Assembly (NCBI GenBank): GCA_017434025.1
Contig: JAFRGC010000066.1
Location: forward strand, 24,074-88,073
From: Mogibacterium sp.
Lineage (GTDB): Bacteria; Bacillota; Clostridia; Peptostreptococcales; Anaerovoracaceae
Direction of reading: 5' to 3'
Length of the DNA: 64,000 nucleotides
Part shown: in pieces, positions 354 through 64,000 of the stretch
Position numbering within the stretch: the stretch's first letter is position 1
How the letters are laid out: the number at the start of each line of letters is the position of its first letter
The notes under the pieces: model-generated
What the model saw: the letters and a program-made list of their open reading frames with translations, nothing else
The model's database searches: none
What the model was told of the DNA's origin: nothing
Position numbers and translations under genes: made by a program

Positions 354-437
354 TGGTCGGCAGGGCTGGACTCGAACCAGCGTGTTTCTACGTCGTGGGG
401 TTACGGCCCACTGCAATCGCCGCTATGCCACCTGCCG
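354..437 (-). tRNA. tRNA-Tyr(GTA), class II
   Basis: Acceptor CGGCAGG/CCTGCCG, anticodon stem GTGGG/CCCAC, loop CCGTAAC with GUA anticodon, a long variable arm of about 13 nt as expected for bacterial tRNA-Tyr, discriminator A and encoded CCA. It starts 1 nt from the 5' end of tRNA-Asn, so the three are clearly cotranscribed. Confidence 0.95.
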
Positions 438-1490: not shown

Positions 1491-1629
1491 AAAGTCCGAG
1501 AATAACGCAACAGCCTTTTTTCCTGCTCTACCTACTGAGCTACTGTCGCATAGGTGCGACAGACTGGATTCGAACCAATGACTAGGGGATTTACATTCCG
1601 ATGTAACTGTATACTCCGCTTCGGACTTT
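1491..1629 (-). ncRNA. element A: apparent circularly permuted tRNA in a conserved RNA scaffold
   Basis: Read on the minus strand: a 9-nt arm (1629-1621) pairs perfectly with the last 9 nt (1499-1491). Next comes a conserved flank (AGCGG...ACAG.T.CATCG), then a tRNA 3' half (1599-1555: GGA, loop ATGTAAA, TCCCC, 5-nt variable, T-arm with TTCGAAT, CTGTCGC, A), CC, a TAT linker, then a tRNA 5' half (1549-1522: GCGACAG, TA, D-arm GCTC/GAGC with GG in the loop, A, GG), then a conserved flank AAAAAAGGCTGTT. Joining 1522 to 1599 gives an exact 73-nt cloverleaf with 7-bp acceptor and GGGGA/TCCCC anticodon stem; the anticodon reads GUA. The flanks pair again through ACAGTT/GGCTGT. It begins 1 nt after the CCA of tRNA-Ile. 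Identity, processing and activity are inferred. Confidence 0.7.
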
Positions 1630-1630
1630 A

Positions 1631-1710
1631 TGGTGCGCTATCATGGATTCGAACCATGGACCGCTCGCATATCAGACGAGAACTCTATACCAGACTGAGT
1701 TTAATAGCGC
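1631..1710 (-). tRNA. tRNA-Ile(GAT)
   Basis: Acceptor GCGCTAT/ATAGCGC, anticodon stem CTCGT/GCGAG, loop CTGATAT giving GAU, T-loop TTCGAAT, discriminator A, encoded CCA (1631-1633). The D-loop is long and A/T rich, unlike the Lys-Asn-Tyr set. Confidence 0.9.
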
Positions 1711-1716
1711 ATACTT

Positions 1717-1757
1717 GTCACAAGGGGGACCATCGAAGATGGTGGATCCCTTATGAC
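1717..1757 (-). other. hairpin in the Ile-Trp tRNA spacer
   Basis: The spacer is almost wholly one stem: 10 bp GTCATAAGGG/CCCTTGTGAC outside and ACCATC/GATGGT inside. No T-run follows, so it is not a terminator. It may guide precursor processing or be a tRNA remnant. Confidence 0.5.
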
Positions 1758-1760
1758 GTT

Positions 1761-1835
1761 TGGCACCCTGAGTAAGATTTTAACTCACATCTTACGGCTT
1801 TGGAGGCCGTTGTTCTGACATTGAACTATCAGGGT
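1761..1835 (-). tRNA. tRNA-Trp(CCA) with altered D- and T-loops
   Basis: Acceptor ACCCTGA/TCAGGGT, anticodon stem ACGGC/GCCGT, loop CTCCAAA giving CCA, discriminator G and encoded CCA (1761-1763). The T-loop reads TTAAAAT instead of TTCRAAT, so position 56 is A, and the D-loop reads AATGTCA, so position 19 is U. The usual G19-C56 tertiary pair is thus replaced by a possible U19-A56 pair, which suggests a functional but unusual tRNA rather than a decayed one. Confidence 0.85.
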
Positions 1836-1839
1836 ATGT

Positions 1840-1890
1840 ACTAGTGCATGTTCCTGTGGATGCACTAGTGCTGGCACCTGGGTAAGTGCC
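1840..1890 (-). other. paired hairpins in the Trp-Asp tRNA spacer
   Basis: A perfect 10-bp inverted repeat (ACTAGTGCAT/ATGCACTAGT, 1840-1849 and 1860-1869) is followed by a GGCAC/GTGCC stem (1873-1890). There is no poly-U tract, so a processing or spacer role is more likely than termination. Confidence 0.5.
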
Positions 1891-1898
1891 GGGTCAAA

Positions 1899-1973
1899 TG
1901 GCGGTCAGTATGGGAGTTGAACCCATGTCTTCCGATAGACAGTCGGAGATAATAGCCGTTATACGAACTGACC
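1899..1973 (-). tRNA. tRNA-Asp(GTC)
   Basis: Acceptor GGTCAGT/ACTGACC, anticodon stem TCCGA/TCGGA, loop CTGTCTA giving GUC, discriminator G as expected for Asp, encoded CCA (1899-1901). Confidence 0.92.
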
Positions 1974-1976
1974 ATG

Positions 1977-2051
1977 TGGTGATCCCCGTGGGACTCGAAC
2001 CCAACATTGTCGGGGCGAAAGCCCGATGTCCTACCTTTAGACGAGGAGACC
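1977..2051 (-). tRNA. tRNA-Glu(TTC)
   Basis: Acceptor GGTCTCC/GGGGATC (two wobbles), anticodon stem TCGGG/CCCGA, loop CTTTCGC giving UUC, T-loop TTCGAGT, discriminator A, encoded CCA. Confidence 0.92.
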
Positions 2052-2054
2052 ATG

Positions 2055-2131
2055 TGGTTGCGGAGGTCGGATTCGAACCGACGATCTTTTGGGTATGAGC
2101 CAAGAGAGCTAAACCGCTGCTCCACTCCGCA
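2055..2131 (-). tRNA. tRNA-Met(CAT), initiator-like D-arm
   Basis: Acceptor TGCGGAG/CTCCGCA, loop CTCATAC giving CAU, encoded CCA (2055-2057). The D-arm TGGAGCAG...AGCTC is that of initiator tRNA. But the first pair is T1-A72 rather than a mismatch, and the anticodon stem has only two G-C pairs next to the loop instead of three. Initiator or elongator use is therefore open. Confidence 0.88.
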
Positions 2132-2146
2132 ACAATGATAAAAATT

Positions 2147-2223
2147 TGGTGCTCCACACAGGATTCGAACCTGTACTGAATGGACTCTCAGCCCACTTCC
2201 TCTACCCATTGGGATACTGGAGC
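2147..2223 (-). tRNA. tRNA-Leu(GAG), short variable arm
   Basis: Acceptor GCTCCAG/GTGGAGC (innermost pair mismatched), loop CTGAGAG giving anticodon GAG, T-loop TTCGAAT, discriminator A, encoded CCA. The variable region is only about 5 nt although bacterial tRNA-Leu normally has a long variable arm, so identity from the anticodon alone is less certain. Confidence 0.75.
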
Positions 2224-2228
2224 AAATG

Positions 2229-2362
2229 CGATGCCCGAGAATATAGAAACAGCCTTTTTCACATGCAAGCATGTGCGGCCGGATTCGAACCGGCAAGTTT
2301 CGTACCTTAAACAAAATGAATTCCAATTCTCGATGAAGCTGTGTTCACCGCTTCGGGCATCG
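2229..2362 (-). ncRNA. element B: second tRNA-like scaffold RNA
   Basis: Same design as element A at the other end of the tRNA cluster. A perfect 10-bp terminal stem (2362-2353 with 2238-2229) differs in sequence from that of A. The flanks are conserved (17 of 22 positions on the 5' side; AAAAAGGCTGTT and TATTCTCGG on the 3' side), with the inner stem ACAGCT/GGCTGT. Inside lie a possible anticodon hairpin around GAATTGGAATTC, a long variable-arm hairpin, a T-arm GCCGG/CCGGC with TTCGAAT, then CACATG joined by CTTG to CATGTG. There is no D-arm, so a full tRNA cannot be rebuilt. It may be degenerate or a reduced relative. Confidence 0.55.
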
Positions 2363-2903: not shown

Positions 2904-3300
2904 GCACACAATGGTTGTGTGCCTACATGCCTTGTTACTGTGCAATCCGGTCACTCGGCACACAATAGTTGTGTGCCTACATGCCTTGTTACTGTGCAAT
3001 CCGGGCCTTCGGCACACAATGGTTGTGTGCCTGACTGCCTTGTTACTGTGCAATCCGGTCACTCGGCACACAAAGGTTGTGTGCCCACATGCCTTATCAC
3101 TGTGCAATCCGGTCACTCGGCACACAATGGTTGTGTGCCTGACTGCCTTGTCACTGTGCAATCCGGGCCTTCGGCACACAATGGTTGAGTGCCTGACTGC
3201 CTTGTCACTGTGCAATCCGGGCCTTCGGCACACAATGGTTGTGTGCCTACATGCCTTGTCACTATGTAATCCGGTCACTTGGCACACAATGGTTGTGTGC
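2904..3300. repeat. 54-bp tandem repeat array with eight palindromes
   Basis: Eight near-identical inverted repeats (GCACACAATGGTTGTGTGC and variants) start every 54 bp at 2904, 2958, 3012, 3066, 3120, 3174, 3228 and 3282. They are separated by 35 bp that is also conserved and comes in two main versions, ending TCACTC or GCCTTC. The conserved spacing DNA excludes CRISPR. Each unit can form a hairpin on either strand. Long frames through the array follow from 54 being divisible by three. Confidence 0.9.
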
Positions 3301-3692: not shown

Positions 3693-6236
3693 TTACCGCA
3701 GTTCTGCCAGTTCGTGCTGTGCTGCCAGGATGTAGTTTGCGTGCTGTGGGGCTCCGGTTGCTCTGTACAGGGCGGTCCCGATCCGGTACATGTCTTCCAG
3801 GTAGTGCTTCCGCTCTGCTGCCGGAAGTGTATCCAGGGTTCCGAGCTTGTAGCAGTTGACTGCCAGGTTTTCCATGGTCAGTATGGAAACGCCTCCGTCT
3901 CCTTCACTGCCTTCTCCTTCATCTCCGCCGCCTTCTCCTTCATCTTCGCCACTGCCTTCGACGCCTTCGGCTTCATCTTCTTCTTCGTCCTCAGCTTCTG
4001 CGTCTTCGGCTTCTGCGGCTGCTATCTGCAGTATGTAGGCTCTGTTCTGGTCATACCACTCCTTTGCGAAGTCGTTCTTGCCCATGAGCACGTACAGGTC
4101 GCCCAGTTTGAGGCAAATGCCTGCTCGGTTCCGCATGGACTCGATGGTTTCTGTCATCTCGCAGATGTCGTCCCACTTGTCTTCGCACTGGAAGTACCAC
4201 TCGCGGGCTTCTTCCAGCTTGCTCTTTGCACCGCTCTGGTCGGCCTTACTTCCTACGCTGCTATGGTCGCCCCTGCTTCCTGCAATGCCTGAACTAGCTT
4301 TGCTCTCTGCCACGCACAGGTCTGCCATGTATTCGTATACGACTGCCAGGTTCCAGAGGGTTTCGAGGGTCTCAGCTTCGTAATAGGCTTGTCTGCACAA
4401 CTCGATGTCTTTCTCGTACCAGTGCCGGGCTTCGTAGGTGTTGCCTTCTTTCTGGCTCGCAAAACCCAACCGCCCGTACGCGACTCCCAGATCCTGTGTG
4501 GCTTCTGCTGTGCCGGTCTCTTCGTAGAGGGCTTTGCTGATTTCCACGTCCTTGTGGTACCAGTTCCGGGCTTCATCCCAGTTGCCGGCTTCCCCGTAAA
4601 CGTCACCGATCTTGTTGTAGGTGTCTGCCAGAGGTTTGCGCGCGGCATCGCCCTCGGCCATCAGCCGGATGTCCAGCTCTTTGTTGTACCATTCCAGTGC
4701 TTCGTCGTGTCTACCTTCTGCCCTGCAGATGTCGCCCATTCTGGAATAGGAGAAGCCGAGATCGCTTTCCGCTTCCGGAGTTCCCTCCTGTGCGGCGATC
4801 TCTTCTCTGGCCTCCAGCGCCTGTTCGTACCAGTCTCTGGCTTCGTCCATGTCGCCATTGTCATAGCAGATATCGCCGAGTCTTTCGTACGCGACGGAAA
4901 GATCCCAGAGGGCCTTCTCGTGGCCAAACGCCCTGACTCGCTCCGCTGCTTCTTGCAGCCTCATCGCGGTATCATAGGCATCTTCGGACTCGTCCTGGTC
5001 TGCCTGATACTGCTCCAGATAAGCGAGTGCGGTGAAATAATCCTGGTAAGCCTGCCCGGTCTGTTCCGCCTCGGCTTTCTCGGCCAAGACATCTGCGTAC
5101 TCTTCCTGCCAGGCGATCGCCTCGTCAAAATCACGCTCGACTGCGTCGCCTGTCCGGAACATGTCGACCATCTTCTCGTACGCTTCAGGGAGTTTGCCGT
5201 CCTCTGCCGCCTCAGCGATCAGACTCACTGCCAGACCCTGATTGATCTCGACATCGACACCGGAGAGATACGCGAGGCCCATGAGGAATTTGTGCTCAGG
5301 GTCGTTCCTCTTGGTGCCCAGAACGACATCCTTGAGGAGCTCTTTGAGCCTCATTGCGATCGCGACTGGATCGCTCAGCGGGAAGCACTGGCCGATGTTC
5401 TCATACATCTGGCGCAGGTCCCCCTGATCCGTCTCTGCAGTCTCTACAGGCAGGGTCTTCATCCCCATGTCCTGAGCGGCCGGATACTCCGTCGTCTGGA
5501 CATAGTTGCCTTGTTCGAGGAGGTTCGGTGTGACGACCAAAGTGAAGAGTTCGCTCTTGCGCATGGCCTCCCGGATCTCATCATTGAAATCCTCGCCCGG
5601 CGTCAGGAACTCGTCGTACCAGATCGCCATGTCGCGACAGGCTTTGATCTGGTGGATCCTGTTCATGACCTTCTGCGCTGCCGCCCTGTCTTTCTTGCGG
5701 TAGCTCAGGAAGATGTACGCGTCAAAAGCGCTCCGGATCCGCTCTGCCGTCTTATCATCGACCAGGACCGATCCGAGAAATCTCTTGAGTTTGTCCCTGT
5801 AAGGAAGTGCCGTCGAGTCAGTCCTCGCCGCCCTCTCGTCCAGGAACTGCAGGTCTCCGCAGATCATGCCAAAATGCTCCGCAAGCCCGGATTCCTGCAT
5901 CAGCGGCAGCACCGGGATGTGGTGCTCTTCCGCAAACTCGAATTCCACCGTTCTCGCAGGATCATCCGTGAAGAGGAAGTTGGAGGTCACCGGCACGACG
6001 AAAAGCTGCATGAGCGCCAGGTCTTCCAGGAACTCTTCAGTGTCCGGGAACGACATATCCGGATCGCGGTACCAGATCGCAGCATTCCGCTGGATGTCCA
6101 GGATCTCGTCCGTGATCCTGTCGAAATACTTACCGAAGTCTTCCTCGTGGCAGCAGAAATACACGCGCGGCCGCCCCTGCGGACTGGCCCCGCCTCTGGT
6201 CTTGTAATTCAGGATCGATCCGAGGTCATGGTTCAT
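3693..6236 (-). CDS. double-TIR, Sel1/TPR-repeat protein
   Basis: 847 aa. Residues about 22-165 form a first TIR-like domain (RVYFCCHEEDFGKYF, AAIWYRDPD). Residues 172-300 form a clearer TIR domain (DAYIFLSYRKKDR, AIWYDEFLTPGEDFNDEI, FTLVVTPNLL) with acidic residues where NAD-cleaving TIRs carry their catalytic Glu. A Sel1-like segment follows (about 315-375), then TPR-like pairs with W-Y-x-(Q/K) helices to about 720, a strongly acidic Gly/Glu run near 745-785 and a C-terminal helical tail. An in-frame Ser/Gly/Ala/Lys-rich insert lies inside the TPRs (4225-4315). The start codon overlaps the ybaK stop by one base (TAATG), so the two are probably translationally coupled. TIR-TPR proteins act as sensors or effectors in conflict systems; enzymatic activity here is inferred. 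Confidence 0.8.
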   Translation of the reverse strand: MNHDLGSILNYKTRGGASPQGRPRVYFCCHEEDFGKYFDRITDEILDIQRNAAIWYRDPDMSFPDTEEFLEDLALMQLFVVPVTSNFLFTDDPARTVEFEFAEEHHIPVLPLMQESGLAEHFGMICGDLQFLDERAARTDSTALPYRDKLKRFLGSVLVDDKTAERIRSAFDAYIFLSYRKKDRAAAQKVMNRIHQIKACRDMAIWYDEFLTPGEDFNDEIREAMRKSELFTLVVTPNLLEQGNYVQTTEYPAAQDMGMKTLPVETAETDQGDLRQMYENIGQCFPLSDPVAIAMRLKELLKDVVLGTKRNDPEHKFLMGLAYLSGVDVEINQGLAVSLIAEAAEDGKLPEAYEKMVDMFRTGDAVERDFDEAIAWQEEYADVLAEKAEAEQTGQAYQDYFTALAYLEQYQADQDESEDAYDTAMRLQEAAERVRAFGHEKALWDLSVAYERLGDICYDNGDMDEARDWYEQALEAREEIAAQEGTPEAESDLGFSYSRMGDICRAEGRHDEALEWYNKELDIRLMAEGDAARKPLADTYNKIGDVYGEAGNWDEARNWYHKDVEISKALYEETGTAEATQDLGVAYGRLGFASQKEGNTYEARHWYEKDIELCRQAYYEAETLETLWNLAVVYEYMADLCVAESKASSGIAGSRGDHSSVGSKADQSGAKSKLEEAREWYFQCEDKWDDICEMTETIESMRNRAGICLKLGDLYVLMGKNDFAKEWYDQNRAYILQIAAAEAEDAEAEDEEEDEAEGVEGSGEDEGEGGGDEGEGSEGDGGVSILTMENLAVNCYKLGTLDTLPAAERKHYLEDMYRIGTALYRATGAPQHANYILAAQHELAELR

Positions 6237-6703
6237 TATTTCTTGAGTGGCATCAGTTCGTATGGCTGGACTTTGGCAAATTCGTCAAGGGTGAGCTCAA
6301 CGAGGTATCCGCCGCCTCCGCCGTTGATGATGACGTCTTTCATGCTGCCGGCGCACTCGTCGAAGATGACTCTGTACTGGTTGGTCATTCCAAGCGGGGA
6401 TGTGCCGCCGTGCATGTATCCGGTGAGGGCTTTGAGCTCAACTGGCTTTATCATCTCAAGAGCGTGCTCGCCGAGTGCTCTTGCGGTCTGTCTCTGTGAA
6501 AGCTTTGCAAGCGCCGGTACGACGAATACGTAGATGCTGCCGGTGGTGTCGCCCTTCATGACGAGAGTCTTGAACAGTCTGTCAGCTTTGTCAGCTCCCA
6601 GCATTCTGAAATAGTCCTCGCCGCTGATGGCTCCCGGGCACTCCAGGAATTCGTACTTAGCATTTACTGCGTCAAGCGCTTCTGTAGCAGGTGTTTTGAT
6701 CAT
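6236..6703 (-). CDS. ybaK: YbaK/EbsC Cys-tRNA(Pro) deacylase
   Basis: 155 aa, the usual length for the family. It would hydrolyse Cys mischarged on tRNA-Pro in the cytoplasm. The family signature G-G-T-S-P-L-G-M and the conserved Lys region LFKTLVMKG are present, as is the C-terminal INGGGGGYLVELTLDEF. It sits between the MoxR gene (34 nt away) and the TIR-TPR gene, whose ATG overlaps its stop. That placement inside a predicted conflict locus is unusual for a housekeeping editing enzyme; it may only be sharing transcription. Confidence 0.9.
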   Translation of the reverse strand: MIKTPATEALDAVNAKYEFLECPGAISGEDYFRMLGADKADRLFKTLVMKGDTTGSIYVFVVPALAKLSQRQTARALGEHALEMIKPVELKALTGYMHGGTSPLGMTNQYRVIFDECAGSMKDVIINGGGGGYLVELTLDEFAKVQPYELMPLKK

Positions 6704-6736
6704 TAGTGTTCCCCTTTCATCTTGAAATAGTGCTTG

Positions 6737-8248
6737 TTATAGTTCGAGGTCCTCTATCACTTTGAGGATCTCGTTCTGTCTCTCGTAGAACAGCAGCTCC
6801 TTGTTGTGCTCGAAATACTTGCTGCACCCGTGTCTGCTGATGTAATGGGCAGAGTAGGAGCCTTTGGTCAGTTCCGTAACTATTATAAGCATCTCCTGCC
6901 CATCCGTGAATGCTTTTTCTGCAAAAACAAACATATTCTCGAGTTCTGCTGCGATTGCATCCACATATTTCCGGTGATCCGCCCTTCTCGCGTTGAAATC
7001 CTGCCGGATGATCTCGAACGCCGCTGCTCCTTCCGGACCGCCTGCCTGTGCCAAAGCCGATACCGCCGCTTCCAGATCTGCGATGATCCCGTGCAAAATC
7101 CTCCGCCTGTCGTCAGACAGCGAATTGGAGCGTTTGCCCGTATCGAGTTCGGTGTGCTTTGCCACAAGCTCCGCCTCCAGCATCTGCGCGACGGAAGCTG
7201 ACGGGTCGGCGAGCGCCGCTTTGATCTTCCTGAAGAAAGCCAGTTCTTCGGTCAGCACCTGTTCTCTGTAGTAGAACTTCCGCAGGTCGCTCCCCACTCT
7301 GTCGAGGATCAGGCCGAGCAGCGACAGGCGCTCGTCGTATCTGGCAGCCTTCGCGCGCTCGATGATCTCATCGGAAGCCTTGCCGGCAAGGATGTCATCG
7401 ATCTGGTAGTCGGATCTGTATTTGTTGAAGAGATCGTAATAATTCGAGAATGATTTGGAGATCCGCGGGTCCTGCAGGTACTGCCCGATCATCTTCTCGT
7501 CGACTGCGATGCCGTTCTGTTCGTAGAGCCGGATCATGTCCGAGAGGTTGAGCCACGCGCGGGCAGTCACGATCGTTTTGCCCTCGACGGTCGTCTCGAC
7601 CCGGTAGAAATCACCGCTCTTGATGTCGAGATAGGTCGAGATCGATGGATGGACGCCGCGGTCCAGCGCGTACTCTTTCCAGATCTGATAGTCCGGCTCG
7701 ATATCGATGCGTTTGAGGCGGTCCCAGGTGACGGTGTCGAATTCGCGCACGGAATTGTTGTATTCCGGAGGGTTGCCGGCTGTGACGACGATCCAGCCGT
7801 CCGGAACACGGTGGCGGCCAAATGTCTTGAACTGCAGGAACTGCAGCATCGACGGGGTCAGTGTCTCGGACACGCAGTTGATCTCGTCGAGGAACAGGAT
7901 GCCTTCCTTGAGCCCGGTCTCTTCCATCAGATCGTAGACCGAAGCGATGATCTCGGACATCGTGTACTCGGAAACGCTGTATTCCTTGCCCCCGTAATTC
8001 TTGGTCAGGATGTACGGCAGGCCGAGCGCGGACTGTCTGGTGTGATGCGTCATCGAATAAGATACCAGTCCTACGCCGAGCTCGGAAGCGATCTGTTGCA
8101 TGATCGCAGTCTTGCCGATGCCCGGAGGGCCCATCAGGAAAACAGGTCTCTGGTCCTCAATGGCGATCTGGTATTCTCCGTATTCGTCCTTGGTGAAGTA
8201 AGCGATGATCGCGTTACGGATCTGGTCTTTGGCATCTCTGATATTCAC
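6737..8248 (-). CDS. MoxR-type AAA+ ATPase
   Basis: 503 aa. I start it at GTG (8246-8248), which has GGGAGG at the right distance and lies 11 nt past the VWA stop; the longer frame would run back into the VWA gene with no ribosome site. Walker A is GPPGIGKT (residues 41-48), Walker B ILFLDEIN (118-124), followed by sensor 1 (VVTAGNPPEYN) and an Arg-finger region (WDRLKRIDIEP). MoxR ATPases work with VWA-domain proteins as chaperones or remodelling machines, and the VWA partner is directly upstream. The C-terminal 200 residues are helical and family specific. Confidence 0.9.
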   Translation of the reverse strand: MNIRDAKDQIRNAIIAYFTKDEYGEYQIAIEDQRPVFLMGPPGIGKTAIMQQIASELGVGLVSYSMTHHTRQSALGLPYILTKNYGGKEYSVSEYTMSEIIASVYDLMEETGLKEGILFLDEINCVSETLTPSMLQFLQFKTFGRHRVPDGWIVVTAGNPPEYNNSVREFDTVTWDRLKRIDIEPDYQIWKEYALDRGVHPSISTYLDIKSGDFYRVETTVEGKTIVTARAWLNLSDMIRLYEQNGIAVDEKMIGQYLQDPRISKSFSNYYDLFNKYRSDYQIDDILAGKASDEIIERAKAARYDERLSLLGLILDRVGSDLRKFYYREQVLTEELAFFRKIKAALADPSASVAQMLEAELVAKHTELDTGKRSNSLSDDRRRILHGIIADLEAAVSALAQAGGPEGAAAFEIIRQDFNARRADHRKYVDAIAAELENMFVFAEKAFTDGQEMLIIVTELTKGSYSAHYISRHGCSKYFEHNKELLFYERQNEILKVIEDLEL

Positions 8249-8259
8249 GGTGATCCTCC

Positions 8260-9687
8260 CTATATATCTTCGTTCTGCAGTACCAGCCTGATTGCCCAAG
8301 GCGGTACTTCCGGTTCGTTGTATTCGTTGTCCAGGAAGACGAAAGCGGTCTCGTATGACGGTTTGCGCACCGGATAGGTCCCGCGTCCGTCGGTGAAATA
8401 GATCAGTCCCCGCAGGTCTGCGAACTCGCCCTGCTCGATCAGTTCGTCCACGAAGTGGAACACCGGCCTGAAATCGGTCCCGCCGAGTCCGTGGATGTCC
8501 ATCTCGCTGATGTACCGGTCGAACTCCTCTTCCGATGTGACTTTGACATGCTCCTGGATCGCTGCGTCACACTGTATGATGTGCACGTTGATCTTCGAGA
8601 AGTAACTCTCGGTCGATTTGAGGATGTTGTATGTCTTCTGGAGAAACCGCTGGACCAGGTCGCCCGAAGTGCTCCCCGAGGTGTCGATGGCGATCACGAA
8701 TTCCCGGATCCGCCTGACTTCCTTGTATTCGAGAGGTTCAACGAGCGGCATGTTTTTGTACAGCTTGAGTCCGTACGTGTAGAAAATATAGTCGAATTCC
8801 TCGTCGTTCACGATCATGTTTTCTCCAAGCACGGAGAACTTCCTGAGGAATGCCGTGTAGTCGTATCTCTCCCGGTTGACCTCCAGCAGGTTCTGCATGA
8901 GACCGCCGGCGGTGTCGCCCTGCTCTCTGGAGAAGGTCTCGAGGTCCTCCTGGATCTTCTCGGCGATCTTCTTCCACTCCTCCATGATCTCTTCCAGCGG
9001 GAGGCTCTCGGCCTGCTCCTCTGCATCGACCGCATCGTTCCTGCCGTCCTGCGTCTCGGTGTCAAAGAGGTCATTGCGCCCGCCGCTCTTGCCCGGAACG
9101 TCGTTGAAGTCCCTGTCCGGCTTGTTGCTGTACCAGCCCCGGTGCTCATCGGCCTCGAAGAGCTTGCCCAGCATGTCGATCTCGAATTCCTGGATGCCGC
9201 CTTCCTTGTAGTAGTGGTAGATCTTCTCAGCCGTCAGAGTCTTGAGCTCTGCTCTGAGCCGCTCGATCTCCGGGTCCTGGGCCATCCTCCGCACCGATCC
9301 CCACGGGTTGATCCCGAGGTCACCGATCGTGCTCTCTACCGCGATGTCGCAGGCGAGATTCCACAGCCTGCGGTCGACATCCGGTCCGATGAACATGTGG
9401 CTGAAGATGCAGTGGAGCACCACGTGGAGATACTCCTGCGCCGGTTTGTCGCGGTCGTTCCTGAAGCACATGAGAACATGCCGTGGCCCGTACTTCAGCC
9501 TGACACCGTCCGTCGCGAGCGTCGCGTCGTCTGAAGGGACCATCTCCAGCCTGCTCAAAGCGATATCGAGGAAGCGCAGCTTGACCATCAAAGTGTTGCG
9601 GGCAAGCGTCAGCACGTCCTGCGCGGCTTTGGCGATCAGGTCATCCTGTGAAACTGTATTCTTAACGTTGTTGTCGTTGTCGGTCAT
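8260..9687 (-). CDS. VWA-like protein with DUF2201-type N-terminal domain
   Basis: 475 aa. The N-terminal part carries H-x3-H-x4-H (HVVLHCIFSHMF, residues 88-97), a metallopeptidase-like motif seen in DUF2201 proteins. A charged linker (about 180-260) leads to a VWA-like C-terminal domain with a full MIDAS: DTSGSTS at 335-341 and a later G-G-T-D. The ATG overlaps the stop of the LRR gene (ATGA) and the stop is 11 nt before the moxR start, so the three genes are an operon. The metal-binding VWA probably docks on the MoxR ring; the target is unknown. Confidence 0.88.
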   Translation of the reverse strand: MTDNDNNVKNTVSQDDLIAKAAQDVLTLARNTLMVKLRFLDIALSRLEMVPSDDATLATDGVRLKYGPRHVLMCFRNDRDKPAQEYLHVVLHCIFSHMFIGPDVDRRLWNLACDIAVESTIGDLGINPWGSVRRMAQDPEIERLRAELKTLTAEKIYHYYKEGGIQEFEIDMLGKLFEADEHRGWYSNKPDRDFNDVPGKSGGRNDLFDTETQDGRNDAVDAEEQAESLPLEEIMEEWKKIAEKIQEDLETFSREQGDTAGGLMQNLLEVNRERYDYTAFLRKFSVLGENMIVNDEEFDYIFYTYGLKLYKNMPLVEPLEYKEVRRIREFVIAIDTSGSTSGDLVQRFLQKTYNILKSTESYFSKINVHIIQCDAAIQEHVKVTSEEEFDRYISEMDIHGLGGTDFRPVFHFVDELIEQGEFADLRGLIYFTDGRGTYPVRKPSYETAFVFLDNEYNEPEVPPWAIRLVLQNEDI

Positions 9688-10976
9688 AATTCGTCAAGCA
9701 GCGGGTCGCCGTGCCAGCCCGACTCTGCCTGGCGCTCGAGGAGGAACGCAGTGCATTCCGGAGCGGCAAGCGAGATCGAACTGTCGATGATCTCTGTGAT
9801 GTTCTCCTCGCCTATCAGGTCATGCTCGCACATGAACGCGAGCATGTCGATGTCTCTGTCGCGCAGCGCACGCTGCGCCATCCTGCCAAAATGTCTGTGC
9901 AGGTAGCCGTCGTACTGCTCGCGGGCAGTATCGGACAGGCCGTAAGGGAATTTGATCCGCGTGACTGCCTGTTTGTCCTTGCACCGCTGGTTCCACTTCA
10001 TGCCGTCAAAGATGACGGTGTCGAGGATCGTGTAGTCGAATGTATTGTCTTCCCGGAACGCCTCGGCCAGAGCGCTCCTGAGGTATGGATCGAAGTCTGA
10101 ATACAGCGGCAGAAGTCCGATGACTTCATCCGTCTGCTCGTCCAGCACAGTGATGTCGATCGAGCTCTCCCACAGGTAGAAATGGTCATCTTCATACTCT
10201 GGATCGGTCCGGTCATCCTTGAAGTAGTTCCTGAGCTCGTAGAGGGCCGGCCTGTAGATCCGGATGCTCTTCTTCCGGTCTGCCGGCCCGAAGCAGTTCC
10301 TCCCGATCGCCTCAACGTTCCCCGGAACGGTGAGTCCGTTCTGGATGCTGCTGAAAGCGTCATCGCCGATCTCCCGCAGGCCGTCCGGCAGTCGCGAGAC
10401 GATGAATGCGTCACAGCGGTAGAACGCTTTGGCCCCGATCTTCTCCGCTGCGTCATAGAGCACGCGGGTGAGCGCGCCGCAGCCCGAGAAAGCTTCCGCT
10501 CCGATCTCGCGCGCACCGCTGATATCTGCGTATGCCAGCGCGTTGCAGCTGCTGAACAGGTATGAAGGGATCTCGCTGAGCCAGTGCAGATCCGCGCGCC
10601 TTATGGACGTGTGTGAGAACGCGCCTGAGCCGACCGATCTGATCGAGCGCGGCAGCTGCGGGATGTCCAGCAGGCTGCAGCAGAAGAACGCCCGCTCTCC
10701 GACGTCTGTGATGTCTCCGATGACGACGGTGCGGAGCGAGCGGCAGAATTCGAAAGCCAGCGGGTCGATCACAGTGACTTTGCTCATCACAACAGACTCC
10801 AGATTGGAGCAGTCCTGGAAAGCGCTGGTCCCGATCCGCCTGACATTCCTCAGGTCTACATGCCTGAGGCTCTTGTTCTTGGCGAAAGCCCCTTCTGCGA
10901 CCTCCGTCACATCATCGGGCATCACGAAACGCTCTTCTGTCCCGTTGTATTCTGTGAAAACGACCTGATCACCCAT
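9684..10976 (-). CDS. BspA-type leucine-rich-repeat protein
   Basis: 430 aa, starting at the ATG at 10974-10976 (MGDQVVFTEYNG), which overlaps the hslO stop by 8 nt. Residues about 20-250 are LRR_5/BspA-like repeats of 20-24 residues with the pattern I-G-x-x-A-F-x-x-C-x-x-L-x-x-V. The rest is non-repetitive alpha/beta sequence. There is no signal peptide, so unlike secreted BspA proteins it is probably cytoplasmic. Its coupling to VWA and MoxR genes suggests a recognition subunit of that complex; this is inferred. Confidence 0.85.
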   Translation of the reverse strand: MGDQVVFTEYNGTEERFVMPDDVTEVAEGAFAKNKSLRHVDLRNVRRIGTSAFQDCSNLESVVMSKVTVIDPLAFEFCRSLRTVVIGDITDVGERAFFCCSLLDIPQLPRSIRSVGSGAFSHTSIRRADLHWLSEIPSYLFSSCNALAYADISGAREIGAEAFSGCGALTRVLYDAAEKIGAKAFYRCDAFIVSRLPDGLREIGDDAFSSIQNGLTVPGNVEAIGRNCFGPADRKKSIRIYRPALYELRNYFKDDRTDPEYEDDHFYLWESSIDITVLDEQTDEVIGLLPLYSDFDPYLRSALAEAFREDNTFDYTILDTVIFDGMKWNQRCKDKQAVTRIKFPYGLSDTAREQYDGYLHRHFGRMAQRALRDRDIDMLAFMCEHDLIGEENITEIIDSSISLAAPECTAFLLERQAESGWHGDPLLDEL

Positions 10977-11853
10977 TGTTTCTCGATGCCATGATCTCTT
11001 CCAGTTCCGCAACGCTGAACTTGTAGGCAGAGTTGCAGAAATAGCACTTCACTTCGATCTCTTCTCCATCGTTGATGATATCCTCGAGATCCTTGGTGCT
11101 GATCGTCGCGAGTGCTCCGGCTACTCTCTCCTTGGAGCATCCGCAGTAGTACCTGACCGGGAGCTTCTCGGTGATGACGAGCCCCAGATCTCCGAGGAAG
11201 TACTGCAGGATGTCTTCCGGCGTCATGCCTTTGTCCATCATCGTCGTGACCGGCTCAGCGGCAGAGACTTTGGCCTCTATCGCAGCGATCGTCTCTTCTG
11301 CCGCATCCGGCATGATCTGTATGATAAAACCTCCCGAATGCTTCACCGAGCTGTCTACGTCGACCATGACTCCGAGACCGACCGCCGAAGGTGTCTGCTC
11401 GGAAACGGTATAGTAATACGCCAGGTCGTCTCCGATCTCTCCAGTCTGGATCTCGACCTGTCCGTTATATGGCTCTTTGAGTCCGAGGTCCATGCTGACG
11501 GTCAGCATCCCCTTGCCAACCGCACCGCCGACATCGAGTTTGCCGGCCCACTTCCTCGGGATATTGACAGACGGATTGGCCGGGAAGCCTTTGACATTGC
11601 CGTGACTGTCGACGGTGACCGTCATCTGGCCGATCGGGCCGTCGCCCTTCATCTGGATCGTCAGTTTGTCATTCTCTCCCTTCATCATGGAGCCCATCAT
11701 CGCACCTGCGCTCAGCAGTCTGCCGAGTGCAGCCGTCACGACCGGGAACGTGTGGTGGATCTCCCTCGCCTCTGCCGTCAGTTCTGTCGATCTGATCGCG
11801 AATGCCCTGACCGTCTCGCCAGCTGCAGTCGCTCTAATGATATAGTCATGCAT
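10969..11853 (-). CDS. hslO: Hsp33 redox-regulated chaperone
   Basis: 294 aa, family length. A holdase activated by oxidation in the cytoplasm. The N-terminal fold starts MHDYIIRATAAGETVRAFA and the C-terminal zinc switch has C-x-C (YYCGCSKE) and C-x-x-C (KCYFCNSA). It is the first gene of the run leading into the LRR-VWA-MoxR-YbaK-TIR genes. Overlapping reading frames tie it to them, so the whole set may be made under oxidative or proteotoxic stress. Confidence 0.97.
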   Translation of the reverse strand: MHDYIIRATAAGETVRAFAIRSTELTAEAREIHHTFPVVTAALGRLLSAGAMMGSMMKGENDKLTIQMKGDGPIGQMTVTVDSHGNVKGFPANPSVNIPRKWAGKLDVGGAVGKGMLTVSMDLGLKEPYNGQVEIQTGEIGDDLAYYYTVSEQTPSAVGLGVMVDVDSSVKHSGGFIIQIMPDAAEETIAAIEAKVSAAEPVTTMMDKGMTPEDILQYFLGDLGLVITEKLPVRYYCGCSKERVAGALATISTKDLEDIINDGEEIEVKCYFCNSAYKFSVAELEEIMASRNNG

Positions 11854-11913
11854 AGTAAATGCCCTCTCTGAAAAAATGTATTTTCACGCGGATCGCTCTC
11901 CGAAGTATGCTTA

Positions 11914-12747
11914 TCAGAAGAGCCCCTCGTAATATTCCTTGTCTTCGTCTTTGAATACGTTGAAGACGACTCTGTCCATTGTGTCCGGGTTATTGGTCAG
12001 CCAATCCGAGACGGTCCTGACAGCGATCTCTGCCGCTCTCTCGCCCGGGAACATGAACACGCCTGTCGAGATGCAGCAGAATGCTACGGTCCTGAGGCCG
12101 TTCTCCCGGCACATGTCCAGGACATTCCGGTAGCACTCGGCGAGCTTCTGCTCATGCTCCGGAGTCAGCCCGTACTGCACGATCGGTCCCACGATGTGGA
12201 TGACCTTCTTCGCTGGCAGGTTGTACGCGTCTGTCAGCATCGGGACGGCTGTAGGCTGCTCGTATTCTTCGCCAAACTTCAGCCTCATCGAGTTCATCTT
12301 CCTGCTGCATTCCGCGCGCAGCTGCACCCCTGCGTAGGTGTGGATGCAGTTGTCGATGCAGTTGTGCATCGGGATAAAACAGCCGATCATCTGTGAGTTT
12401 GCCGCATTCACGATCGCGTCCGCGGCGATGCGGGTGATGTCGCCCTGCCAGACCGAGATCAGGGTCGCGCATGGATGTGTACTGCCGAGGCTCTCCTCAA
12501 CCGTCTCTATATTATTGATGTTGACGATACCCTTCTCCAGCGCGCGTCCTCTGAGATAGATGTCCTGCACGGACAGCACCGAAGCCGGAGCCGGCCTGGC
12601 GTCCCGGATATTCATCAGGGATCTCAGCAGGCGCTGCTTCCCTTCTGTATCGTTCGGGATCCTCACCCTGCGGTATTCAGGCTTCTCATCCTTGAACCGC
12701 TGCACCAGATAATCCAGTCTCTGTTCCTGCGTAATGGTCTCGCTCAT
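11914..12747 (-). CDS. zinc-type macrodomain protein-ADP-ribose hydrolase
   Basis: About 277 aa, started at the ATG at 12745-12747 (MSETITQEQRLDYL) with a GAGGG ribosome site. An N-terminal helical region of about 110 residues precedes a macrodomain beginning ISVWQGDITRIAADAIVNAAN, with the H-N-C-I-D-N-C-I-H and later Cys pattern of zinc-dependent macrodomains and a G-x-F ribose loop (STGVFMFPG). Members of this group remove ADP-ribose from proteins and are often paired with sirtuins and lipoylation enzymes, but no such partner is adjacent. It lies near a TIR protein, also tied to NAD chemistry; a link is speculative. Confidence 0.88.
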   Translation of the reverse strand: MSETITQEQRLDYLVQRFKDEKPEYRRVRIPNDTEGKQRLLRSLMNIRDARPAPASVLSVQDIYLRGRALEKGIVNINNIETVEESLGSTHPCATLISVWQGDITRIAADAIVNAANSQMIGCFIPMHNCIDNCIHTYAGVQLRAECSRKMNSMRLKFGEEYEQPTAVPMLTDAYNLPAKKVIHIVGPIVQYGLTPEHEQKLAECYRNVLDMCRENGLRTVAFCCISTGVFMFPGERAAEIAVRTVSDWLTNNPDTMDRVVFNVFKDEDKEYYEGLF

Positions 12748-12859
12748 AATTCCCTCGCTTGATTCTCTCAATGCCCATACATAATAAGTATACATCAGTT
12801 GGCACGCACTATGCTAATCGCAGATGCGCTGTTTCTGCAAATCCTGAATATCTGCATTG

Positions 12860-63860: not shown

Positions 63861-64000
63861 ATTAAGTAGGGGCTAGCTTGTAGCCCCTCTCACACCACCG
63901 TACGTGCCTTTCGGCATACGGCGGTTCAAATCAACTTCAACATGTGCCGTTCGGCATAATAATCGGACAGACTGACTAGCCCCGCGCGGGCTAGTTTTTC
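63861..64000 (-). mobile_element. class C group II intron, 3' end (continues past the window)
   Basis: Minus strand domain V at 63925-63894: ACCGC...GAAA tetraloop...GGTGGT with a CGC catalytic triad as in bacterial class C introns and a 2-nt bulge. Then domain VI hairpin GGGGCTA/TAGCCCC (63887-63869) and a terminal CCTACTTAAT-like end near 63861. To the right are domain IV stems (CTAGCCC.../GGGGCTAG). The reverse-transcriptase gene, if any, lies beyond the window. The 3' exon leads toward rpsT. Confidence 0.82.

What the first reader, a model, noticed from the sequence alone, without database searches (positions are those of the whole stretch)
1491..1629. Apparent circularly permuted tRNA gene in a bacterium (element A)
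The 3' half of a tRNA (1599-1555) precedes its 5' half (1549-1522), separated by CC and a TAT linker. Rejoined between 1522 and 1599 they give exactly 73 nt with every stem paired: 7-bp acceptor, 4-bp D stem, GGGGA/TCCCC anticodon stem (two bases from one half, three from the other) and a normal T-arm. Chance or decay would not restore the split anticodon stem. Permuted tRNAs are known from red and green algae and some archaea; I know of no bacterial case of this form. The anticodon reads GUA but the variable arm is short, unlike bacterial tRNA-Tyr.
Basis: partly seen in the sequence, partly recalled or inferred. Interest (0 to 1): 0.92.

Follow-up and report, generated by a model that had tools for sequence, protein, structure and literature searches.

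The report
Ro60 Y RNA mimicking permuted tRNA
What looked like a scrambled bacterial tRNA gene is most likely a Y RNA, a non-coding partner of the Ro60 protein, whose far end imitates a whole tRNA read in circular order, anticodon loop included; similar RNAs lie beside Ro60-like genes in many viral sequences.

Summary
The fold is not chance: in seven related elements (four of this genus, three viral) 18 of 32 pairs change on both sides, the split anticodon stem included. The reading as a permuted tRNA gene is not supported. The flanking stem GUCCGAAGCGG.../...UAUUCUCGGAC also carries sibling RNAs lacking D and anticodon arms; one ends 130 nt before a Ro60-like (TROVE) gene in this genome. Of 78 viral loci found by an RNA pattern and holding such an element, 54 have a Ro60-like match (52 of 76 without two loci that supplied queries), against 0 of 67 control loci. 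So it is best read as a Y RNA ending in a circularly permuted tRNA mimic. The anticodon is not conserved (21 triplets in 44 viral elements), CCA follows the acceptor in 6 of 49, and no archaeal-type splicing endonuclease was found. What looks new is the retained, canonical-looking anticodon arm, absent from the Rfam YrlA consensus. A decoy or sensor for tRNA-cutting defences is the boldest reading left open.

The parts
1494..1626 (-). Element A: whole predicted Y RNA with permuted-tRNA effector domain
   Evidence: Rfam YrlA 38.8 bits, E 8e-7, below gathering 69
1621..1626 (-). P1 5' strand GUCCGA (Y-RNA-type lower stem), pairs with 1494-1499
   Evidence: P1 pairs complete in 11 of the 11 elements of alignment A5 that my coordinates did not cut short (row B was cut); 4 of 6 P1 pairs change on both sides among 7 elements
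1494..1499 (-). P1 3' strand UCGGAC
1606..1610 (-). P2 5' strand ACAGU, pairs with 1510-1514
1510..1514 (-). P2 3' strand GCUGU
   Evidence: no pair of P2 changes on both sides, and 2 cells (L306) do not pair
1587..1599 (-). Anticodon-arm hairpin GGA-AUGUAAA-UCC (positions 29-41 of the mimic)
   Evidence: Two of three pairs change on both sides across 7 elements; GGA/UCC in A and C, GGC/GCC in G036 and G011
1585..1586 (-). CC (42-43) pairing with GG 1522-1523 (27-28): the part of the anticodon stem that spans the break
   Evidence: One of two pairs changes from C-G to G-C in 3 of 7 elements, the other never varies
1563..1579 (-). T arm AUUGG-UUCGAAU-CCAGU
1556..1562 (-). Acceptor 3' strand CUGUCGC, pairs with 1543-1549
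   Evidence: All 7 acceptor pairs change on both sides somewhere among 7 elements
1550..1555 (-). Acceptor-closing loop ACCUAU (discriminator-like A, CC, UAU)
   Evidence: CCA follows position 73 in 6 of 49 elements
1543..1549 (-). Acceptor 5' strand GCGACAG
1525..1540 (-). D arm GCUC-AGUAGGUA-GAGC
2233..2358 (-). Element B: sibling RNA with the same P1/P2 flanks, a T arm and a capped hairpin, no D arm
   Evidence: (fold z -3.70, 0 of 200 shuffles as good); relatives in G011 and G013
1631..2223 (-). Ordinary tRNA array (Ile, Trp, Asp, Glu, Met, Leu) lying between elements A and B
354..437 (-). Ordinary tRNA-Tyr(GTA), 84 nt as in tRNAs with a long variable arm: the genome has another tRNA with the triplet of element A

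Best explanation
Element A is a bacterial/phage-type Y RNA. Its 5' and 3' ends pair into a conserved stem with the motif GUCCGAAGCGG (inferred Ro60/TROVE-protein binding site). The other end folds into a complete tRNA mimic, read in circularly permuted order because both RNA ends leave through the anticodon stem between positions 28 and 29. No splicing is needed: the RNA works as transcribed, as a tether between a Ro60-like protein and whatever recognises a tRNA. Shown by sequence: architecture, covariation, family, linkage of the family to TROVE genes. Inferred: binding by the TROVE-like protein encoded on contig 8 of this genome, and the effector function (published for other Y RNAs: tethering PNPase, being modified by tRNA enzymes; here possibly presenting an anticodon loop to tRNA-cutting enzymes).
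For: Sibling element D with the same flanks ends about 130 nt before a 548-aa TROVE-like gene in the same genome. That protein: Pfam TROVE 21.4 bits against cut-off 23, 23.8 with its neighbours in frame; phrog_850 RNA-binding protein E 5.8e-41 over residues 5-528; solved TROVE protein E 2.7e-7; phage G gp540, noted as putative TROVE domain ribonucleoprotein, 56% identity over the full length. In 47 genomes of the genus (own included) the protein is in 4 and the stem motif in 5, all 4 included, reversed-pattern control 0; the fifth, G013, has a phrog_850 (DUF2828/DUF7788) relative. Phage G has an element of the same build about 2 kb upstream of gp540 and five small Y-like RNAs directly upstream of it (the five read by eye). 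In L353 the element lies directly before an open frame with TROVE 32.8 bits, above cut-off. 54 of 78 viral loci holding the element have a TROVE-like match, 46 of them within 1 kb; without the two loci that supplied queries 52 of 76; controls 0 of 67. Flanks of the viral elements pair better with their own partner (mean -21.1 kcal/mol, n = 80) than with swapped ones (-13.0). Covariation. GGUCCGA is named as conserved Ro60-site sequence of animal Y RNAs (PMC11277228, passage). YrlA ranked first of all Rfam families on A.
Against: Rfam YrlA score 38.8 is far below the gathering score 69, and ordinary tRNA arrays in G218 and G121 reach 37.4 and 37.8, so the Rfam hit alone proves little. A and C are not beside the TROVE gene; they lie in tRNA arrays on another contig. 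11 of 47 genomes of the genus have a phrog_850 match and 6 of these 11 lack the exact stem motif. Only 3 of 81 viral elements carry the genus motif GAWGCGG; the others have different lower-stem letters. 24 of 78 viral loci show no TROVE-like match in the DNA held. The TROVE Pfam score is marginal and the AlphaFold model was unusable (single sequence, mean pLDDT 36.7). The bulged C of animal Ro60 sites is not evident in P1 (by eye). No expression or binding data. The anticodon loops keep tRNA hallmarks, which a plain structural mimic would not obviously need. One canonical-looking YrlA (G233) was not beside a recognised TROVE gene (4 neighbouring ORFs scanned).
Confidence: 0.86

Rival explanations
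1. True permuted tRNA gene: the enclosing stem is cut out, the ends are joined at 28|29 (perhaps by RtcB), and RNase P and other nucleases open the acceptor to give a decoding tRNA.
For: Complete cloverleaf with exact 28|29 geometry; ARAGORN of 49 rejoined elements, 46 with the triplet as read (the 49 were chosen for 5 of 5 anticodon-stem pairs); loops keep U33 in 38 of 44 and purine 37 in 43 of 44; RtcB is encoded in the genome; CCA follows position 73 in 6 of 49.
Against: ARAGORN also accepts junctions shifted by 1-2 nt (43-47 of 49), so it does not test the junction. Triplets differ among relatives A, G036, G011. Ser, Leu and Tyr triplets come with short variable arms (Ser 8 of 8; but the search pattern itself favours short arms). 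Position 73 does not follow the triplet (Asn: C,G,T,G,C,C). The stretch between acceptor strands is 4 nt or less in 16 of 49, UUCG among those seen. No PF01974 endonuclease in the genome. Ordinary tRNA-Tyr(GTA) and tRNA-Ser(GCT) are present. Sibling RNAs share the flanks but have no full tRNA to splice.
Confidence: 0.05
2. A special form of the best explanation, not exclusive with it: the Y RNA's anticodon arm is a decoy or sensor for anticodon nucleases (phage counter-defence), with Ro60 as carrier.
For: Anticodon arm supported by covariation; 44 of 81 viral elements pair 5 of 5 against a mean of 2.8 after shuffling; 32 of 44 have U33, purine 37 and A38 together against 3% of shuffled loops; 21 different triplets (22 by the tie-breaking). 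A 2020 paper suggests that YrlA could act as competitive inhibitor of an anticodon nuclease (PMC7790460, passage); a jumbo-phage survey places TROVE proteins among phage RNA-repair systems answering anticodon cleavage (PMC7824862, passages).
Against: No cleavage or protection data; the same 2020 paper says YrlA was not a substrate of the nuclease studied; 37 of 81 viral elements do not pair 5 of 5 by my parser, and dealing the 27-28 dinucleotides anew still leaves 14.0 of 81; several sibling Y RNAs lack the arm.
Confidence: 0.35
3. Remnant of two neighbouring tRNA genes in an array, paired by chance.
For: A lies beside a tRNA array, and head-to-tail tRNAs naturally give 3' half before 5' half.
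Against: Seven-bp acceptor pairing between the halves with changes on both sides at all seven pairs among 7 elements; relatives with no ARAGORN tRNA within the DNA held (L260, 17 kb; L353, 10.6 kb); halves swapped between elements are called only 13 of 49 times.
Confidence: 0.02
4. Decaying tRNA pseudogene caught in a repeat element.
For: B and D forms lack arms.
Against: 219 of 221 pair cells are standard over deep divergence.
Confidence: 0.01

Closest known systems
YrlA / bacterial Y RNAs (Rfam RF02553; Salmonella, M. smegmatis, D. radiodurans Y RNAs)
   Same: Terminal stem bound by a Ro60 orthologue, tRNA-like far end with T, acceptor and D arms in permuted order; association with Ro60 genes (literature passages)
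   Different: Different lower stem sequence; score 38.8 against gathering 69; a complete anticodon arm sits at the junction where the RF02553 consensus goes from stem to a 4-bp helix without a hairpin; A and C lie in tRNA arrays away from the TROVE gene found
Circularly permuted tRNA genes of red and green algae and archaea
   Same: 3' half before 5' half, acceptor closed by a linker
   Different: No archaeal-type endonuclease found; no bulge-helix-bulge motif seen by eye (no motif search was run); non-constant anticodon; stretch between acceptor strands often 4 nt or less; flanks conserved as a stem of their own
Two-piece (permuted) tmRNA
   Same: Permuted tRNA-like RNA in bacteria (PMC3978253, passages)
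   Different: No mRNA-like part seen; Ro60 linkage instead
Bacillus phage G unannotated RNA at NC_023719.1 405194-405347 (L275:1781-1934) and small RNAs upstream of gp540
   Same: Same stem motif, same 28|29 opening, same arms; 56% identical TROVE protein
   Different: Anticodon stem CGGAC/GUCCG, triplet UAU, acceptor followed by ACCA and a longer linker

Membership tests
Bacterial Y RNA (Ro60 partner) | 5' and 3' ends pair into a conserved lower stem carrying the Ro60 site | tested here: met
   P1 complete in 11 of 11 uncut elements, P2 duplex in 12 of 12; GGUCCGA motif of animal Y RNAs shared in sequence, its bulged C not evident
Bacterial Y RNA (Ro60 partner) | Encoded with or near a Ro60 orthologue | tested here: met
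   For the family: element D beside the TROVE-like gene in this genome; 54 of 78 viral loci, controls 0 of 67. A and C themselves are not adjacent
Bacterial Y RNA (Ro60 partner) | Bound by the Ro60 orthologue in the cell | not testable with these tools
   Needs pull-down or binding assay
Bacterial Y RNA, YrlA class | tRNA-like domain with D, T and acceptor arms | tested here: met
Rfam RF02553 YrlA model | Score at or above gathering (69 bits) | tested here: not met
   38.8 bits; ordinary tRNA arrays reach 37.4 and 37.8. Not filed under RF02553 as modelled
Circularly permuted tRNA gene | 3' half precedes 5' half and rejoining gives a full cloverleaf | tested here: met
Circularly permuted tRNA gene | tRNA-splicing endonuclease (PF01974) in the genome | tested here: not met
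   0 matches; 4 archaeal controls positive. The assembly is 84% complete, so absence is not proven
Circularly permuted tRNA gene | Constant anticodon fitting the tRNA body | tested here: not met
   GUA, GUC, AUC in relatives A, G036, G011; position 73 does not follow the triplet; variable arms short, though the pattern favours that
Circularly permuted tRNA gene | Mature joined tRNA in RNA data | not testable with these tools
   No RNA-seq available
Ro60/TROVE protein (partner on contig 8) | TROVE HEAT ring plus vWA domain | tested here: inconclusive
   TROVE 21.4 bits, cut-off 23; 23.8 bits with neighbours in frame; PDB TROVE protein E 2.7e-7; full-length phage relatives; DNSGS motif read by eye; AlphaFold model unusable

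The most novel reading that the evidence does not exclude
Phages (large ones among them) and some bacteria carry a Ro60-bound class of Y RNAs that display a complete anticodon arm with a wide choice of anticodons on a permuted tRNA body. They act as decoys or damage sensors for host anticodon nucleases, so that Ro60 RNPs would be a phage counter-defence platform for translation.
Probability: 0.35. Interest if true: 0.82.

Novelty: new variant of a known kind. Interest (0 to 1): 0.62.

Why it matters
Bacterial Y RNAs are known to mimic tRNA, but the purpose of the mimicry is not settled in the papers whose passages I saw. A phage-linked class that keeps the anticodon arm, under pairing constraint and with varying triplets, gives a direct clue and a testable prediction: that something reading anticodon loops is the partner. 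It also warns genome annotators that apparent permuted tRNA genes in bacteria and phages can be Y RNAs, and that ordinary tandem tRNAs can imitate both.

Tried and rejected
Rfam alone: rejected as proof, because ordinary tRNA arrays in L269 and L270 score 37.4 and 37.8 with RF02553. 3'-flank pattern in viral contigs: 67 loci, R1 found one weak hit of 17 bits; these loci became the control set. First 5'-flank pattern in viral contigs: 0. Protein scan of viral contigs with A6: 22 stretches matched a peptide pattern, none confirmed; a failure of that method, since related proteins were found. I first took the strong phrog_850 hits as classical Ro60 proteins; Pfam shows DUF2828 plus DUF7788 instead, so they are called relatives only. 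ARAGORN on rejoined halves does not test the exact junction. The AlphaFold model had mean pLDDT 36.7, so no fold search was made. Group I, group II and self-cleaving ribozyme readings of the flanks were considered from recalled motifs and not pursued once the Ro60 linkage appeared. Primary papers on YrlA (Chen 2014, Wang 2018, Sim and Wolin 2018) and Greiling 2018 were not held, so 'the anticodon arm is new' rests on the Rfam consensus and review passages only.

Full report
Observation. The sequence is as described. On the minus strand 1599-1555 and 1549-1522 form, when joined at 1522/1599, a 73-nt cloverleaf. ARAGORN and Rfam at gathering level do not report it. The element lies just downstream of an ordinary tRNA array, 1631-2223. 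2 of 200 shuffles fold at least as well as the native RNA.

What the finding does not mention. The cloverleaf halves are enclosed by a stem of their own: GUCCGA 1626-1621 with UCGGAC 1499-1494 (P1), and ACAGU 1610-1606 with GCUGU 1514-1510 (P2), with the constant AGCGG and UAUUC between them. A search of the window's own genome with the 3' flank found the same flanks at 2358-2233 (B) and on contig 8 (D). Reading the neighbouring tRNA arrays showed a fourth (C, L009), and model R1 gave a fifth (E, contig 8). A and C have the full permuted tRNA. E has T, acceptor and D arms. B and D have a T arm and a capped hairpin but no D arm. Since the flanks are constant while the tRNA part is dispensable, the flanks are the common functional part and hardly an intron (inference).

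Identity. A permissive Rfam scan of the element ranked YrlA, the bacterial Y RNA, first: 38.8 bits, below the curated threshold of 69. That alone is weak, because ordinary tRNA arrays in two other genera reach 37.4 and 37.8 bits in the same family. The stronger evidence is genetic. A 548-aa protein with a marginal TROVE (Ro60) match starts about 130 nt after element D. It matches phrog_850 over its length, a solved TROVE protein, and gp540 of Bacillus phage G, noted as putative TROVE domain ribonucleoprotein, at 56% identity. In 47 genomes of the genus the protein occurs in 4 and the stem motif in 5, including all 4, with no hit of the reversed-pattern control. The fifth genome, G013, carries a phrog_850 relative. 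Against this, 11 of 47 genomes have some phrog_850 match and 6 of those 11 lack the exact stem motif. P1 carries GUCCGA; a review names GGUCCGA as the conserved Ro60-site sequence in animal Y RNAs (PMC11277228, passage).

Relatives. Phage G has an unannotated element of the same build (L275:1781-1934, 91.6 bits with R1) between gp538 and gp539, about 2 kb upstream of gp540, and five smaller RNAs with the pattern GAWGCGG...ACAGYTACTTC...CTGTT...TCTCA or close to it directly upstream of gp540 (read by eye). Of 120 viral stretches from a stem pattern, two gave further strong elements (L306, L353). In L353 the RNA lies directly before an open frame that passes the TROVE cut-off (32.8 bits) and scores 26.1 bits, just below cut-off, with the Ro60 vWA model. 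No TROVE match was seen in the five L306 frames scanned.

Covariation. In the 4 congeneric elements three pairs changed on both sides: one each in P1, the anticodon arm and the acceptor. With phage G, L306 and L353 added, 219 of 221 cells pair, 18 of 32 pairs have double changes, and 43 cells have them, against 12.4 in shuffles and at most 7 when slid. All seven acceptor pairs, two of three hairpin pairs and one of the two pairs spanning the break are covered; P2 shows no double change. Three cells with gaps were set aside; in L353 the arm is UCC/GGA, shifted by two columns. The break at 28|29 is therefore an old, kept feature.

Wider family. A pattern made only of RNA letters (CAGTTACWTC, 18-26 nt, T loop) matched 118 stretches in IMG/VR. 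My parser found 124 occurrences, 91 with acceptor and D arm, 81 of them unique. 44 of 81 pair all five anticodon-stem pairs, against a mean of 2.8 after shuffling the middle (highest 7 in 200 rounds) and 14.0 when the 27-28 dinucleotide is dealt anew (highest 22). The other 37 of 81 do not. The parser takes the best of several offsets; the controls use the same rule for the arm. Only 3 of 81 have the genus motif GAWGCGG, but the flanks still pair: mean duplex energy -21.1 kcal/mol for own partners (n = 80) against -13.0 for swapped ones, 30 of 80 better than 95% of swaps, and CTG follows position 28 within 25 nt in 71 of 81. Of 78 loci with a unique element, 54 have a TROVE-like match at E 1e-4 in the DNA held, 33 within 500 bases, 46 within 1 kb, 52 within 2 kb. 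Without L353 and L447, which supplied queries, it is 52 of 76; among loci with 5 of 5 pairs it is 33 of 44. 0 of 67 control loci have one. The control loci came from another pattern (600 kb in all; the 88 element loci before duplicates were removed hold 767 kb). Some held stretches are only 1-4 kb long, so the true share may be higher.

Is it a tRNA? The loops look like real anticodon loops: U33 in 38 of 44, purine 37 in 43, A38 in 38, all three together in 32 of 44 against 3% of shuffled loops. But there are 21 different triplets (22 with the tie-breaking), and close relatives differ (GUA in A, GUC in G036, AUC in G011). Ser, Leu and Tyr triplets come with short variable arms, though the pattern itself favours short ones. 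Position 73 does not follow the triplet. The stretch between the acceptor strands is 4 nt or less in 16 of 49, and CCA follows position 73 in 6 of 49. This genome has ordinary tRNA-Tyr(GTA) and tRNA-Ser(GCT), RtcB and no PF01974 match (assembly 84% complete). ARAGORN of 49 rejoined elements, 46 with the triplet as read, but also 43-47 with shifted junctions, 13 with swapped halves and 8 native segments, so it shows that the halves belong together, not that they are joined.

Mechanism. Best supported: a Ro60-type RNP in which P1/P2 is held by the TROVE protein and the tRNA mimic faces a partner. Published partners or enzymes of such RNAs are PNPase, DusA and TruB (PMC8394870, PMC4726728, passages). 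Why the anticodon arm is kept is open. A 2020 paper proposed that YrlA might inhibit an anticodon nuclease, while showing that YrlA was not cut by it (PMC7790460, passages), and a jumbo-phage survey lists TROVE proteins, with a tRNA-like partner in cells, among RNA-repair systems (PMC7824862, passages). An arm with varied triplets fits a decoy or sensor, which is inference.

Known or new. tRNA-mimicking Y RNAs are known; that they also lie beside phage Ro60 genes is recalled from the abstract of Chen 2014, not seen here. The retained anticodon arm is absent from the RF02553 consensus, and the review passages describe only D, T and acceptor arms. A search for papers holding both 'circularly permuted tRNA' and 'Y RNA' gave 0. 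Related searches showed no title announcing it, but most of their lists were cut (for example 20 of 942), few of the papers were opened and none was read in full, and the key primary papers were not held. Hence 'new variant of a known kind', with that reservation. The strong form (R1 at E 1e-13 or better) occurs in 3 of 349 genomes of the family, all in this genus; phages as the main reservoir is an inference.

Noticed in passing
L133:399-973 (G016:C15) and L134/L137 (G036:C22): A ROOL RNA (RF03087, 310 bits in L133; cut-off parts in L134 and L137) sits inside tRNA arrays (27 tRNAs in L259) that also hold a DUF2828/DUF7788 phrog_850 protein, a D-type Y RNA and the TROVE-like protein.
   Followed up: partly
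L275:3240-3930 (Bacillus phage G, upstream of gp540): Five small unannotated Y-like RNAs in tandem sharing GAWGCGG...ACAGYTACTTC (by eye), some without any evident tRNA part.
   Followed up: partly
L267 (G233:C225:23202-23270): A canonical-looking YrlA without anticodon arm (by eye) in another genus of the family, no TROVE gene recognised among four neighbouring ORFs.
   Followed up: partly
L269, L270: Ordinary tRNA arrays score 37.4 and 37.8 bits with the Rfam YrlA model; a likely source of false YrlA hits.
   Followed up: yes
window 2904-3300: Tandem array of a 54-bp unit with an inverted repeat (GCACACAATGGTTGTGTGC), 7.4 copies.
   Followed up: no
window 3693-12795: A TIR-TPR protein (3693-6236), an aminoacyl-tRNA editing domain protein (6236-6703), a MoxR-like AAA ATPase (6737-8299), a DUF2201 VWA-like protein (8260-9687) and a macro-domain protein (11914-12795).
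   Followed up: no
window 63861-63926: Group II intron match (RF00029, 46 bits) at the window edge.
   Followed up: no
L127:433-576 (G000:C8:91932-92075): Element E, a Y RNA with T, acceptor and D arms but a different anticodon region.
   Followed up: partly
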